Assembly (NCBI GenBank): GCA_028287415.1
Contig: JAQBPS010000475.1
Location: forward strand, 1-10,554
DNA from: Bacillota bacterium
GTDB lineage: Bacteria; Bacillota; Sulfobacillia; Symbiobacteriales; Symbiobacteriaceae
Direction: 5' to 3'
Length of the DNA stretch: 10,554 nucleotides
The notes beneath the pieces were generated by a model. That model ran no database searches and was not told the origin of the DNA. It worked only from the letters and a program-made list of their open reading frames with translations. The stretch's first letter is position 1. The number at the start of each line of letters is the position of its first letter. Of the stretch, positions 3,674 through 7,657 are shown piece by piece. The position numbers were made by a program, and so were the translations under genes.

Positions 3674-3757
3674 AATACACAAGGGTTTCGCAGCCTGGAC
3701 GGGGTATCTACTACTATTATCGACTGCAAAGCATGCGCAGCGGGTGCGGCCCGCGGC

Positions 3758-3793
3758 AGAAAATAGGAGCGCCACCCTGGGGGGTGGCGCTCC
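3758..3793 (-). terminator. Strong terminator hairpin facing the minus strand, upstream of EVE
   Basis: A perfect 12-bp stem (3766-3777 against 3782-3793; GGAGCGCCACCC and its complement) with a 4-base loop. On the minus strand the stem is followed by TATTTTC, a U-rich tail. On the plus strand it is followed by GGAACGATCC, so it can end only leftward transcription. The nearest leftward gene is the RNase H-like gene ending at 4126, so the transcript would cross the whole EVE gene before stopping here. The hairpin would also insulate the aldo/keto reductase from read-through. Confidence 0.75.
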
Positions 3794-3830
3794 GGAACGA
3801 TCCGCAATGAGACGGGGGAGGGCGACAGCG

Positions 3831-4262
3831 ATGCCATATTGGCTGATGAAAACAGAGCCGGAGGATTTCAGCTACCTCGACCTGGAGCGCCGGGGCCGGG
3901 AGCCCTGGAACGGGGTGCGCAACGCCACGGCCCTCAAGCACATGCGTGCCATGCAGCCGGGCGACCTGTTCCTGTTCTACCACACGGGCCGGGAGAAAGC
4001 GGTGGTTGGGGTCGGTCAGGTGGTCACGCCGCCCTATCCGGATCCGCAGGCGGGCGACCCCCGGTTTGCCGTCGTGGACGTGGTGCCGGCTTACCGGTTT
4101 CAGACACCGGTCACCCTGGCGGCGATCAAAGCGGACCCTGCCTTTGCCGGCTGGGAACTCGTGCGCCAGTCGCGCCTGTCGGTAATGCCAGTAGCGCCGG
4201 AACTGTGGCAGTACCTTCACGCGCTGGGGCAAACCCAGGCACCGTCGCCAGGAACGCCCTGA
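3831..4262 (+). CDS. EVE-domain protein (predicted modified-base reader)
   Basis: A 143-residue single-domain protein of the EVE family, a member of the PUA/ASCH/YTH-like fold group, thought to bind modified bases in DNA or RNA; human THYN1 is a relative. Landmarks are YWLMKTEPEDFSY (residues 3-15), WNGVRNATALKHMRAMQPGD (26-45), FYHTG (49-53), VVDV (about 89-92) and LVRQSRLSVMPV near the end. The length is normal and nothing is missing. The ATG at 3831 has a GGAGGG SD (3817-3822) 8 nt upstream; the longer open frame before it has no family similarity. It is the only plus-strand gene left of the haem operon and overlaps the 3' end of the RNase H-like gene by 137 bp, tail to tail. EVE domains occur in housekeeping, RNA-modification and restriction contexts; the neighbour here makes a nucleic-acid role plausible but not shown. 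Confidence 0.93.
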   Translation: MPYWLMKTEPEDFSYLDLERRGREPWNGVRNATALKHMRAMQPGDLFLFYHTGREKAVVGVGQVVTPPYPDPQAGDPRFAVVDVVPAYRFQTPVTLAAIKADPAFAGWELVRQSRLSVMPVAPELWQYLHALGQTQAPSPGTP

Positions 4263-5823
4263 GCGGGACATGCGGCCGTCGGGAGGGCCTGTGGTACCAA
4301 AGCTGCGCCCGATAAGCCTCGTCGCACAGCCTGTCCACGGCATAGACCTCGTCCCGGGGCACCCAGCGGAGCCGCACATCGCATCCACGCTTTGTCAGCA
4401 AGCTGATCAGGCGGCGAACAGTCCTGTCCAGCGTGATGCAGCCCTGCTTGCGCCGCGCCGGGTGCGGGCGCCGGATTCGGCTGAGCATCGTCTTGCAGTC
4501 TGACCAGATCTCGACCTGGGCCCCCGGCGGGGGATCGCCAGCGAACAGCCATCCGAGTGCCATGGCAGCGGCGCCATATTCAGCCATGAGGCTCCCGGCC
4601 GAGGGACCGCAGCAGACCACCTTGCTGGCCCGGAACGCCGCCTCGTCGCCAATGTGCACCTGGAAGCCCGAGATTGCGATGCCGGCACGCCCCTCCCTGT
4701 GCCGGTACAGGCCATCGCATTTGATTAGCACCCGCTCCAGGGCCAGGCTGCGCAGCTGCCGGTCGAATGCGGCAAAGCCGGCCCACGCGGGAATGGTCAC
4801 CCCGTCGCCCACGGTACCGCCCAGTGACTCCACGAGCAGCCGGTGGAGCCCCTGGTCCGCGGAAGGACCGTCCACTGTCACAGTGCGCCCCCGCAGCAGG
4901 TCGACCGGCCCGGTTGCAACCACAGATGCCAGCGTGCGGGCAAATTCGTCACGGGCCCCGACCAGTCTGGCGCGCAGGGTGGCCAGTTCACCCGCTTGCT
5001 TGCGGGCCAGCTCCGCGAGTTCCCGCTCCTGTGCAGCCCATTGCGCCTTGAGCGCCCGGTGGGCTCCTGCGACCTCGCCCCGGGCCTGCGTCAGCAGGGT
5101 GCGGGCCTCCTGCTCAGCACGGCGGGCCCGGTCCTTCAAGTGCCGTCGGTCCTGCTGGAGTCGGCGCACGTTCTGCCGCAGGGCGCCCGACTGCCGGTCT
5201 TTGGTGCGGAGCTCGTCCGCCAGTTCGGGCTGCACTGCCGCCGCAGCCTCCTGTGCCGCCCGGTCCGGCCCCAGTTCGGGGTAGACAATGCGGCGCAGTG
5301 TCAGCCGCCCCACGCTGAGCCACAACTTGTACTGCCGCGGCGCAAAACTGTCCAGGCTCTTGAGCCACTTCTGGAGACCTCTGGCCTTGCCAAGGTATCG
5401 CCGCACATGGATCATCCACATAATATGCAGCCCGTCTTGATACGCCCTGGCAAAGCACTCATCGGTCAGCCGGTGGGCCTGCGTGGCGGCGTCGGGAAAG
5501 GCGCCCATGCCGCACCGTGGGATTAAATCGGTCAGGAATGTACGGACTGTCGCGTCTTTCCATCGGCGCAGGATCATCAGTGTGGCCCGGCGCTTCGCCT
5601 TCGGGCCGGTATGGGAGACCGGGACATTGGCGACGCGGCACAGCTTGGTCCAATAGCCGCCATCAAAGTAGCGCACCATGTAGGCCGCCGCACAGAAAAG
5701 TTCCGCCTCCGCATCGGGGATGGCGGCAGCCGCCGGGTCGGCAGCAAGCCACGCGGCCACGATCCGCTCCTGTGCGTTTATTTCTGCCCGGGGCAACGCA
5801 AACAGCCAGTCCTGCTGCTGCAT
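4126..5823 (-). CDS. Multidomain protein: helical N-domain, coiled coil, C-terminal RNase HI-like domain
   Basis: A 565-residue protein that I do not recognise as a named family. Residues about 20-185 are helical, with PDAEAEL and MILRRWKD, and are related to the upstream gene's product. Residues about 200-300 are rich in Arg, Glu, Gln and Ala with heptad-like spacing, probably a coiled coil. Residues about 308-345 (LLRGRTVTVDGPS..., LLVESLGGTV) faintly recall DUF2325. Residues about 364-510 look like RNase HI of the plant/archaeal type: IKCDG (Asp370), AEYGAAAMAL (Glu415), EIWSDCKTML (Asp442) and WVPRDEVYAVDRLCDEA (487-503, candidate fourth ligand Asp497, alternative Asp501). The active site therefore seems complete, implying cleavage of RNA-DNA hybrid or a related nuclease activity. 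The tail from about 511 is low in complexity, and its last 45 residues or so lie opposite EVE. The ATG start follows the previous stop by 2 nt. Confidence 0.8.
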   Translation of the reverse strand: MQQQDWLFALPRAEINAQERIVAAWLAADPAAAAIPDAEAELFCAAAYMVRYFDGGYWTKLCRVANVPVSHTGPKAKRRATLMILRRWKDATVRTFLTDLIPRCGMGAFPDAATQAHRLTDECFARAYQDGLHIMWMIHVRRYLGKARGLQKWLKSLDSFAPRQYKLWLSVGRLTLRRIVYPELGPDRAAQEAAAAVQPELADELRTKDRQSGALRQNVRRLQQDRRHLKDRARRAEQEARTLLTQARGEVAGAHRALKAQWAAQERELAELARKQAGELATLRARLVGARDEFARTLASVVATGPVDLLRGRTVTVDGPSADQGLHRLLVESLGGTVGDGVTIPAWAGFAAFDRQLRSLALERVLIKCDGLYRHREGRAGIAISGFQVHIGDEAAFRASKVVCCGPSAGSLMAEYGAAAMALGWLFAGDPPPGAQVEIWSDCKTMLSRIRRPHPARRKQGCITLDRTVRRLISLLTKRGCDVRLRWVPRDEVYAVDRLCDEAYRAQLWYHRPSRRPHVPLRAFLATVPGFAPAREGTATVPALLALPTGATGARVPSRQRQGPL

Positions 5824-5825
5824 GG

Positions 5826-6746
5826 TCACTGCCTCCTTTCGGCGGCGGACCATGCGGTGCGGACCGTCAGCGTGCGCTGGTAATCGTGGAGCGCAGCGGC
5901 CAGTTCGGCATGGAGGCGATCGGCCGCCTCCCGGTGAACGCAGGCCTGCTCCGCCAGGGCGGCGGCATGCAGTCGCGCAGCCTCGGTGTGAGCGGCACGG
6001 AGCTTTGCCAGCTCCGACGCCAGTCCGTCCAGCTCCGGGTGCTGCTGCCGCCTGGCCGCGCGCACCCGGCGCAACAGCGACTGCCGCTCCCGACGCAAGG
6101 CGTGGCTACTACGCGTCATAGCGTGCAACTGCACGTCCCGCAGGCGGATTCGCCGGGCCAGCTTCTGCTGCTCCCACGGGGAGGGTTGCCGCGGCGGTTC
6201 GGGCTGTGTGATGAACTCGTGCATCAGCACCTTCCCGAACAGCAGCAGCGCGCGGTAGCGGCTTGCCTGGGCGGGGGAAAGCGCAGCCATGACCGCGGGC
6301 ACCGTGTCGCCCAAACCGTGGTGCCGCAGCGCCGAGATGACCTGCGGTGCGCCATACCAGTCGACCGAGGGCAGGAGCGCCGTGACGCCCTCCGGCCCCC
6401 GCAGCTTACGGATGCCCCGGAAGTCGAGCGTGAGTGCACGCTGAAGGAACGCCTGGCGCAGGATCGGGTCCCGCCACCGCCGCAGAATGTAGCGCCCCAG
6501 GCGGTATTCGTCGTATGTCAGTTCGATGGGAAAGCTGATGCGGGCCGCCTGAAGGTTTGACACGATCTGCTTGTGATCCACATAGTCCATGTAATGTGCG
6601 GCCTGAAGGAAATCTTCGGCCTCCTCGTCCGGATACTGGGCGGCCTCCGGGCACGCGGCGTAGCGCCGCTCCTGATCGGCGGCAAATTCCGCCGCCACGG
6701 ATGCCGCGATCTCCCGTAGGACAAGGTAACGCCTGCCCCGAACCAC
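5826..6746 (-). CDS. Helical plus coiled-coil protein, paralogous to the RNase H-like protein's N-domain
   Basis: A 306-residue protein of unknown function. Residues 39-97 align without gaps to residues 36-94 of the downstream RNase H-like protein with 19 identities, including PD-EAE-F, AA, Y-D, ILRRW and a following D and R. Residues about 195-295 are Arg/Ala/Glu/Gln/His-rich and helical, probably a coiled coil. There is no RNase H part, signal peptide or membrane segment. It reads like a nuclease-less partner of the next gene: same front half, coiled coil that could pair with the partner's. The stop is 2 nt before the partner's ATG, and the partner's SD lies inside the last codons, so translation is likely coupled. 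The GTG at 6746 is chosen because AAAGGAGG lies exactly 8 nt upstream; a GTG at 6755 would overlap that SD. Confidence 0.8.
   Translation of the reverse strand: MVRGRRYLVLREIAASVAAEFAADQERRYAACPEAAQYPDEEAEDFLQAAHYMDYVDHKQIVSNLQAARISFPIELTYDEYRLGRYILRRWRDPILRQAFLQRALTLDFRGIRKLRGPEGVTALLPSVDWYGAPQVISALRHHGLGDTVPAVMAALSPAQASRYRALLLFGKVLMHEFITQPEPPRQPSPWEQQKLARRIRLRDVQLHAMTRSSHALRRERQSLLRRVRAARRQQHPELDGLASELAKLRAAHTEAARLHAAALAEQACVHREAADRLHAELAAALHDYQRTLTVRTAWSAAERRQ
5832..5839 (-). promoter_or_regulatory. SD inside the upstream gene that fixes the RNase H-like protein's start
   Basis: AAAGGAGG on the minus strand, 8 nt before the ATG at 5823-5821. It overlaps the codons for the last residues (ERRQ) of the upstream protein. 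The longer frame opening at 5853 begins before this SD and has none of its own. Confidence 0.75.
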
Positions 6747-6754
6747 CGCCGACA

Positions 6755-6762
6755 CCTCCTTT
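6755..6762 (-). promoter_or_regulatory. SD that fixes the start of the first operon gene
   Basis: AAAGGAGG on the minus strand, identical to the SD of the second gene and with the same 8-nt spacing to its GTG (6746). The matched sites suggest similar initiation rates for the two proteins. Confidence 0.7.
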
Positions 6763-6765
6763 ATA

Positions 6766-6780
6766 TATCCTTGAAGGATA
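6766..6780. promoter_or_regulatory. 15-bp perfect palindrome just upstream of the SD: possible operator
   Basis: TATCCTT-G-AAGGATA, 7-bp arms around one base. It ends 3 bp from the SD of the first operon gene, in an A/T-rich island (6759-6802) within high-GC DNA. A candidate -35 (TTGAAA on the minus strand, 6790-6795) lies 9 bp upstream, which would place the palindrome on the -10 region or early transcript; the -10 (AAGGAT, 17 bp away) is poor. It could be an operator for a dimeric repressor. It is too short for a terminator. Confidence 0.45.
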
Positions 6781-6823
6781 ATACGGAAGTTTCAAGCATA
6801 AAGTTCGGGGCATGCTGCTTACC

Positions 6824-7657
6824 TCACCAGCTCTTGCCATCCCGCCCGTCGATGTACAGGGGGTGCTCCGGCGGCTGCCCCTCACACCAGTACTTGTCGA
6901 AGTCGGTGACGCCGGCCTCGCCCAGGATTTCCTCGTCGGTCAGTTGGCGGCCGGTGCAGCGGGACGGCTCCTGCCGCAGAATCGCCATCACTGCGTCACA
7001 CATGATCGCGGGTGTCCGCCACACGGTCCGGTCGCCCAGGCCGTAGTTGATGACGGCGGCAGTCTCGATGGGTGTGACCGGCCAGAGCGCATTTGCAGCG
7101 ATGTTGTCCGCCCGATGCTCCTCAGCAATGCCGATCGCCAACCGGGCCATCCCCATTTTGGAAATCATATAAGCGACCATGCCCGGGTTCGCCCGCGTGC
7201 TGATCGCCGGGGCCATGTTGATGATGTGGCCCCACCGCTGCCGCTGCATGTGCGGCAGGACATACTGCGAGCATAGGAATGCGGCGCGCACGTTGACGCC
7301 CATGACCAGGTCGAACCGTTTGGCGGGCGTATCCAGGACCGACTGCCACCAGAGGGCGCCGGCATTATTGATGAGGATATCGACCCGCCCGAACTCGGCC
7401 ATGGCCTGCTCAACCATGGTGGCGATCTCCGTTTCCTCCCGTACGTCCACCTTGCACGCCAGCGCCCGGCGCCCTCGCTCCCGCACGGCCTCCGCCGTTT
7501 CGTAGATGTTGCCGGGCAGCTTCTCCCGGGACCGCTCGCTCTTGGCAGCGACGACAATGTCGGCGCCCTCCTCCGCCAGACGCAGGGCGAGCGCCTTGCC
7601 AATGCCCCGGCTGGCGCCCGTGATGATCGCTACCCTTCCCTCCAACATGCTGCCCAC
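6824..7657 (-). CDS. Short-chain dehydrogenase/reductase, HSDL2-like
   Basis: A 277-residue SDR-fold oxidoreductase using NAD(P)H; the substrate is unknown. It has the cofactor motif TGASRGIG (13-20), DV (71-72), NNAG (97-100), the structural Asn122 and the active-site pair Tyr163/Lys167 (YMISK). The region after KLPGNIY (47-52), then PAKRFDLVMGVN, NALWP, and the C-terminal GEAGVTDFDKYW is the pattern of the HSDL2 type rather than of FabG. The catalytic serine is not obvious: the segment that should carry it reads INMAPAIST (146-154), with Ala149-Pro150 where Ser is expected and Ser153 as the nearest candidate. GTG start at 7657 with an AGGGGG SD (7666-7671) 8 nt upstream. It diverges from hemE across 146 bp. 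Its stop is 77 bp before the two-gene operon, with no clear terminator, so some read-through is possible. Confidence 0.9.
   Translation of the reverse strand: MGSMLEGRVAIITGASRGIGKALALRLAEEGADIVVAAKSERSREKLPGNIYETAEAVRERGRRALACKVDVREETEIATMVEQAMAEFGRVDILINNAGALWWQSVLDTPAKRFDLVMGVNVRAAFLCSQYVLPHMQRQRWGHIINMAPAISTRANPGMVAYMISKMGMARLAIGIAEEHRADNIAANALWPVTPIETAAVINYGLGDRTVWRTPAIMCDAVMAILRQEPSRCTGRQLTDEEILGEAGVTDFDKYWCEGQPPEHPLYIDGRDGKSW

What the first reader, a model, noticed from the sequence alone, without database searches (positions are those of the whole stretch)
4126..6746. Two-gene operon of paralogous helical/coiled-coil proteins, one carrying an RNase HI-like domain
Residues 39-97 of the first protein and 36-94 of the second align with no gap (19 of 59 identical, including ILRRW). 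Both continue into a charged helical, probably coiled-coil region. Only the second adds an RNase H-like domain. The genes are 2 nt apart with identical SDs (AAAGGAGG, 8 nt). This suggests a duplicated scaffold making a nuclease plus nuclease-less partner complex. I do not recognise it as a described system; function (defence, RNA processing, element control) is unknown.
Basis: partly seen in the sequence, partly recalled or inferred. Interest (0 to 1): 0.72.

Follow-up and report, generated by a model that had tools for sequence, protein, structure and literature searches.

The report
RNase HI-like gene and nuclease-less twin
Two neighbouring genes that arose by duplication encode a probable RNA-cutting enzyme and a matching partner without the cutting part; the pair has been seen so far in one little-studied bacterial group, has its own stress-type promoter, and has no assigned function.

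Summary
In detail: A (306 aa) and B (565 aa) lie 2 nt apart with identical Shine-Dalgarno sequences and share 19 of 59 residues without gaps. The paralogy covers nearly all of A: 282 profile columns, E 5e-21; A and B form separate clades, as one old duplication predicts. B ends in an RNase HI fold with four catalytic acids in 39 of 39 homologues. New here: (1) before the nuclease B carries the start of a DUF2325 domain, and a single-gene relative with helical N-domain, coil and full DUF2325 exists in another family of the class, so B looks like such a protein with its tail replaced by RNase HI; (2) in all three loci whose DNA could be read the operon has the same promoter-like element, GAAC-N17-CGTATT, of ECF-sigma type; its fuller form occurs exactly nowhere else in 8 genomes of the order. 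The pair is accessory, changes neighbours and gave no hit in the phage, plasmid and viral collections. Best explanation: a stress-induced two-subunit RNase HI acting on RNA-DNA hybrids. Heteromer, induction and substrate are inferred.

The parts
6780..6806 (-). Conserved promoter-like element GAACTTTA-N13-CGTATT (equivalently GAAC-N17-CGTATT), ECF-sigma type, upstream of gene A
   Evidence: Same element upstream of both A genes of genome G001; exact pattern found at these 3 places only in 8 genomes of the order, reversed control 0.
6766..6780 (.). Palindrome TATCCTTCAAGGATA just downstream of the -10-like element; not seen in the two G001 upstream regions
   Evidence: function unknown.
5826..6746 (-). 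Gene A: 306 aa, helical N-domain (about 10-180) plus long helices (190-305); nuclease-less paralogue of B
4126..5823 (-). Gene B: 565 aa, helical N-domain, long helix, start of DUF2325, RNase HI
4912..5214 (-). B residues 204-304: predicted single long helix; its first part 204-255 is the best conserved stretch of B (59% mean pairwise identity)
4735..4911 (-). B residues 305-363: alpha/beta segment that begins like DUF2325
   Evidence: Profile match to DUF2325 sequences, E 4.2e-9 over 32 columns, 0 of 24 shuffles as high.
4294..4734 (-). B residues 364-510: RNase HI domain, catalytic D370, E415, D442, D497
4126..4262 (-). 3' end of B (about 45 codons, low-confidence tail) antisense to the 3' end of a convergent EVE-domain gene
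   Evidence: a similar tail is seen in the two closest homologues P0003 and P0004.

Best explanation
A and B are the two subunits of an accessory, stress-inducible RNase HI. An ancestral one-gene protein (helical N-domain, coiled coil, DUF2325) was duplicated in the Symbiobacteriaceae line. One copy (A) lost its C-terminal domain; in the other (B) most of DUF2325 was replaced by an RNase HI domain. Both are made together from an ECF-sigma-type promoter, with the genes 2 nt apart. Through in-register coils (by eye: B L215, V219, L222, R226, L229 against A M210, L214, L217, R221, L224, with an almost invariant Arg at the same heptad place) A and B assemble, and the helical N-domains place the nuclease on its target. 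B cuts the RNA strand of RNA-DNA hybrids with metal ions, as RNase HI does, most likely R-loops or other hybrids that build up under the stress sensed by the ECF sigma factor. Shown by computation: domains, paralogy, intact active site, conserved promoter-like element, accessory distribution. Inferred: heteromer, coil register, hybrid substrate, R-loops as target, use of the promoter by an ECF sigma factor, induction by stress.
Against: No complex prediction or experiment. Heptad periodicity is not significant for A. Neighbouring genes inherited together give correlated distances even without contact. Only three upstream regions were available. Five conserved cysteines in the RNase H domain are unexplained by a plain RNase HI. 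P0038 (373 aa) and P0063 (308 aa) lack the N-domain; fragment or real short form is not known. 10 of 21 A homologues and most B homologues have no partner in the lists, which are incomplete. B's own N-domain profile does not match the G443 protein (E 0.043), only A's does. Stress signal and hybrid substrate come from family knowledge only.
Confidence: 0.5

Rival explanations
1. An anti-phage or anti-element module: the A-B scaffold senses a replication intermediate with RNA-DNA hybrid (phage, group II intron, plasmid) and B destroys its RNA.
For: Patchy presence (2 of 8 genomes of the order, own included, two copies in one), strong divergence, no fixed neighbours. The genome with 26 reverse-transcriptase hits (G004) lacks the pair, too few genomes to mean much.
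Against: No significant match in PADLOC-DB of 2023 (best E 0.065); none of the 18 neighbouring ORFs scanned in three loci is a recognised defence gene; an ECF-like promoter is not typical of defence modules (recalled).
Confidence: 0.2
2. A is an inhibitor (antitoxin-like) that holds the nuclease of B inactive until a signal comes.
For: A is the first gene and is homologous to the non-catalytic part of B, so it could occupy B's coil.
Against: A is large and has no recognised DNA-binding or other known domain; RNase HI is not known as a toxin (recalled).
Confidence: 0.1
3. A and B each form homo-oligomers and do different jobs; they are merely co-transcribed paralogues.
For: Coils of A and B share register with each other and so with themselves (by eye); no interface evidence.
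Against: Pair adjacent in all 3 loci whose DNA was read, correlated divergence.
Confidence: 0.15
4. A selfish or mobile two-gene cassette.
For: Different neighbours at each of three loci; own promoter-like element; two copies in one genome.
Against: None of 14 inverted repeats found in 3700-7200 has both arms outside the pair; no transposase or integrase among the 18 neighbouring ORFs scanned; no match in plasmid, phage and IMG/VR collections.
Confidence: 0.05

Closest known systems
Prokaryotic RNase HI of the archaeal/actinobacterial type (S. tokodaii RNase HI 3aly/2ehg; Rv2228c 3hst; NCBIfam NF041175)
   Different: Fused to a helical N-domain, long helix and start of DUF2325; family-specific Cys at 369, 405, 443, 462, 500; a nuclease-less partner gene; below NF041175's own cut-off (24.7 against 140 bits)
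DUF2325 (PF10087) coiled-coil proteins of the same class (clearest: G443; weaker: G451, G449)
   Same: N-domain similarity (A profile to G443 E 8e-9; B profile to G451 E 1.8e-4), coil, and the start of DUF2325
   Different: Single genes with full DUF2325 and no RNase H; no function of DUF2325 is given in the three papers whose passages I saw
HIV-1 reverse transcriptase p66/p51 (analogy, recalled)
   Same: Heteromer of a nuclease-bearing subunit and a shorter, RNase H-less version of the same chain
   Different: There from one gene by processing; here from two genes, without polymerase
Stand-alone RNase HI-SWIM proteins (G122, G396)
   Same: The two RNase H domain matches outside the window's genome among 398 phylum genomes at E up to 1e-8 (8.1e-18 and 9.7e-18)
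   Different: SWIM zinc finger and no coil; loci with other gene content

Membership tests
RNase HI (type 1 RNase H) | RNase H fold | tested here: met
RNase HI (type 1 RNase H) | D-E-D-D catalytic acids | tested here: met
   D370, E415, D442, D497 in 39 of 39
RNase HI (type 1 RNase H) | Pfam PF13456 or PF00075 over its cut-off in B itself | tested here: not met
   B has neither at E up to 10. 27 of 39 homologues match RVT_3 at E up to 1, best 3.5e-6; 3 of 39 carry a precomputed PF13456 label. Divergent sequence, fold and active site kept
RNase HI (type 1 RNase H) | Cleavage of RNA in RNA-DNA hybrids | not testable with these tools
   Needs an assay
DUF2325 (PF10087) | Full domain over the curated cut-off | tested here: not met
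   No Pfam hit in B; only 32 columns at the start align, E 4.2e-9
DUF2325 coiled-coil proteins (common ancestry) | Collinear N-domain, coil and start of DUF2325 | tested here: met
   hhalign of A1 against the G443 protein: 230 columns, probability 88, E 2.9e-6, running through the coil into DUF2325 (no shuffle control). A2 against it: E 4.5e-9. B's N-domain alone against G443: E 0.043, no match
ECF-sigma promoter | AAC -35 core and CGTA/CGTC -10 core 16-17 nt apart | tested here: met
   GAAC-N17-CGTATT in 3 of 3 loci; published geometry seen in passages
ECF-sigma promoter | Transcription by an ECF sigma factor | not testable with these tools
   Needs transcription-start mapping
Known anti-phage defence system | Match to PADLOC-DB (2023) models, or recognised defence genes beside it | tested here: not met
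   Best PADLOC E 0.065, coil region; 18 neighbouring ORFs in three loci

The most novel reading that the evidence does not exclude
A new kind of signal-controlled RNA-DNA hybrid nuclease: a heteromeric coiled-coil RNase HI, built from a DUF2325 scaffold, induced by an ECF sigma factor and gated by conserved cysteines next to its catalytic acids, so that envelope or oxidative stress switches hybrid (R-loop) degradation on.
Probability: 0.15. Interest if true: 0.75.

Novelty: new variant of a known kind. Interest (0 to 1): 0.5.

Why it matters
Bacterial RNase HI is generally thought of as a small housekeeping monomer (recalled). A dedicated two-subunit version with its own stress-type promoter would tie removal of RNA-DNA hybrids to a regulated response. 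It also gives a foothold on DUF2325, a domain for which the papers seen here give no function: on the same scaffold most of it appears to have been swapped for an RNase H domain, which suggests that the scaffold's role is to bring a C-terminal module to nucleic acid.

Tried and rejected
Reading the middle segment as a BRCT domain: considered from the pattern LxG...ESLGG, not tested by a search of its own, set aside because the DUF2325 profile match was direct. Only RNase HI of the cell: rejected for G001, which has a canonical one; in the window's genome (77.8% complete) none was found, so open there. Mobile element ends: none of 14 inverted repeats in 3700-7200 flanks the pair. Conserved neighbours: none across the three loci among the ORFs scanned; the large ORF downstream of the C72 pair was not scanned (my range failed). 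N-domain fold: no Foldseek match of the A model under E 0.001, VIA-align rows almost only for the long helices; inconclusive, the N-domain alone was not predicted. LexA box as a reading of CGAAC: considered by eye; the second half (GTTCG) is not kept, while CGTATT is. Regulon: beyond the three pairs the relaxed pattern finds a site before a YmdB-like gene in G002, G003 and G004 (gene name recalled) and single sites, 3 in G001 and 1 in G005; I recognised no ECF sigma gene behind the sites read (by eye, loci of about 3 kb). Homologues outside the family: a profile search of 5.8 billion proteins gave 40 proteins at E up to 10, the 39 known and P0063 (only 7997 candidates were scored); 398 phylum genomes gave, outside the window's genome, only two RNase H-domain hits (at most 3 candidates scored a genome); a genome-collection scan gave one locus, in G001's MAG. 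DUF2325-positive genomes of the order: the G001 one read has another N-part. RVT_3 model over 8 genomes: no match at E 0.01, so it misses this family. Literature, listings only: DUF2325; RNase H + coiled-coil + Symbiobacterium; Symbiobacterium + ribonuclease H; RNase H + coiled-coil + paralogous + two-gene operon; two of RNase HI domain, defense system, reverse transcriptase-like: no title or abstract start described this pair. Passages were read in PMC9426514, PMC6934571, PMC10534721, PMC6767563 and PMC2375139; PMC6637203 was not opened.

Full report
What was checked. The 2-nt spacing, the shared AAAGGAGG with 8-nt spacers and the 19 of 59 ungapped identities hold; 0 of 200 shuffles reach the score.

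Relatedness. 39 B proteins (alignment A1) and 22 A proteins (A2) were used, the window's own included in each; P0063 came later. The few rows whose source names an organism say Symbiobacteriaceae or Bacillota bacterium. Profile against profile, A matches B from residue 13 to 303 over 282 columns, E 5.1e-21; N-domains alone 163 columns, E 4.4e-14, 0 of 24 column shuffles as high. In a tree of 62 rows (38 B, 21 A, 3 outgroup; P0038 and P0056 left out) A and B are each one side of a branch with support 99/99, so one duplication before the spread of the family suffices. The tool warns that the long outgroup branches are placed unsurely.

Where it came from. The A profile hit, at E up to 1e-5, 3 of 154 genomes of the class: the window's own, G001 and G443 (G443 E 1.4e-9). 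The G443 protein (392 aa from a TTG start chosen by me) has a DUF2325 above the Pfam cut-off (37.0 against 33.6 bits). A search with it hit 19 of 154 genomes at E up to 1e-4, itself included, mostly through coil plus DUF2325; stretches of 15 more of these were fetched and read (in one, G464, no single frame covered the hit). As to N-domains (single sequences, no shuffle control): G443 matches the A profile at E 8e-9 but the B profile only at 0.043; G451 matches B at 1.8e-4; G449 about 4e-3; G435 and G015 not detectably; several others carry other domains before DUF2325 (by eye). The segment of B before the nuclease aligns with DUF2325 over 32 columns, E 4.2e-9, 0 of 24 shuffles as high, and the G443 protein aligns with B through the coil into this segment (E 2.9e-6, probability 88). 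So B looks like a coiled-coil DUF2325 protein whose C-terminal part was replaced by RNase HI. Four held papers use the word DUF2325; of three seen in passages, one calls it unknown and its gene the most induced by bactericidal light in Campylobacter, one lists it as possible encapsulin cargo, one guesses a virion role.

Pairing and distribution. 11 of 21 A homologues share the longest-contig length with a B homologue, two with adjacent locus tags; the other 10 have no partner in the lists. G001 holds two pairs, both adjacent in DNA; no row bears the length of either contig, so that list is incomplete. Distances over 12 pairs correlate with r 0.875, 0 of 5000 permutations as high, 0.718 for the RNase H domain of B alone. 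In the order, 2 of 8 genomes, own included, have the pair. It is accessory: G001 has a canonical RNase HI and RNase HII-type genes besides. No match in IMG/VR, plasmid or phage collections.

Promoter. Upstream of A the three loci share CGAACTTTA.G and CGTATT at fixed spacing in otherwise different sequence. GAACTTTA-N13-CGTATT occurs exactly 3 times in 8 genomes, all at the pairs; 11 more sites have one mismatch; the reversed control gives 0. The relaxed GAACTT-N15-CGTATT occurs 10 times, control 0: 3 at pairs, 3 before a YmdB-like gene in three related genomes, 4 single. The geometry is that of ECF sigma promoters (passages). In G001 the element follows terminator-like hairpins with T-runs, by eye, so the pair is probably its own transcription unit; in the window it begins 17 nt after the stop of a short-chain dehydrogenase gene on the same strand.

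Neighbours differ: EVE-domain gene, aldo/keto reductase, short-chain dehydrogenase and haem genes in the window; trypsin-like, peptidyl-prolyl isomerase, TPR and DUF6544 genes (C72) or aldehyde ferredoxin oxidoreductase and radical-SAM genes (C141) in G001 (9 ORFs scanned there, 9 in the window).

How it most likely works. Shown: an intact RNase HI active site on a duplicated scaffold with a nuclease-less partner, kept together, behind one conserved ECF-like element. Inferred: the first part of the long helix, the best conserved stretch of B (59%, against 55% for the RNase H domain; A 55%), joins A and B in register (B L215, V219, L222, R226, L229 against A M210, L214, L217, R221, L224; family-majority residues, register by eye); B cuts RNA in hybrids under stress. 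Heptad periodicity is significant only for B 205-255, which weakens this step.

Verdict. An undescribed (in the searches made here) two-gene RNase HI-like system, real and conserved, of unknown trigger: a new variant of a known enzyme kind, with a new link between DUF2325 scaffolds and a nuclease.

Noticed in passing
L009 (G000:C660) 5125-6126 +: Same genome: a 333-aa tandem RNase H protein (P0064); by eye the first domain has lost two catalytic acids, the second keeps all four; sits upstream of genes resembling asp23, nusB and folD (names recalled). Second domain 39% identical to that of B.
   Followed up: partly
window 6766-6780: Palindrome TATCCTTCAAGGATA between the promoter element and the Shine-Dalgarno of A; possible operator, not seen in the two G001 upstream regions.
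   Followed up: partly
window 3766-4262: B overlaps the convergent EVE-domain gene by 137 nt, and of the two terminator-like sites found on its strand the strong one (3793-3766) lies beyond that gene's start, so the A-B transcript may run antisense to all of it.
   Followed up: no
B residues 369, 405, 443, 462, 500 (window 4294-4734): Five nearly invariant cysteines around the catalytic acids, unusual for RNase HI ('unusual' recalled); possible metal or redox site.
   Followed up: no
L070, L071, L076: A GAACTTTTGTGC-N9-CGTATT site is kept before a YmdB-like phosphodiesterase gene (name recalled) in three related genomes.
   Followed up: partly
G004: 26 reverse-transcriptase domain hits in one 3.6-Mb genome of the family, against 0-2 in the other seven.
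   Followed up: no
L018, L019: RNase HI-SWIM zinc-finger proteins in two distant genomes, the only matches to the B profile outside the window's genome among 398 phylum genomes at E up to 1e-8.
   Followed up: partly
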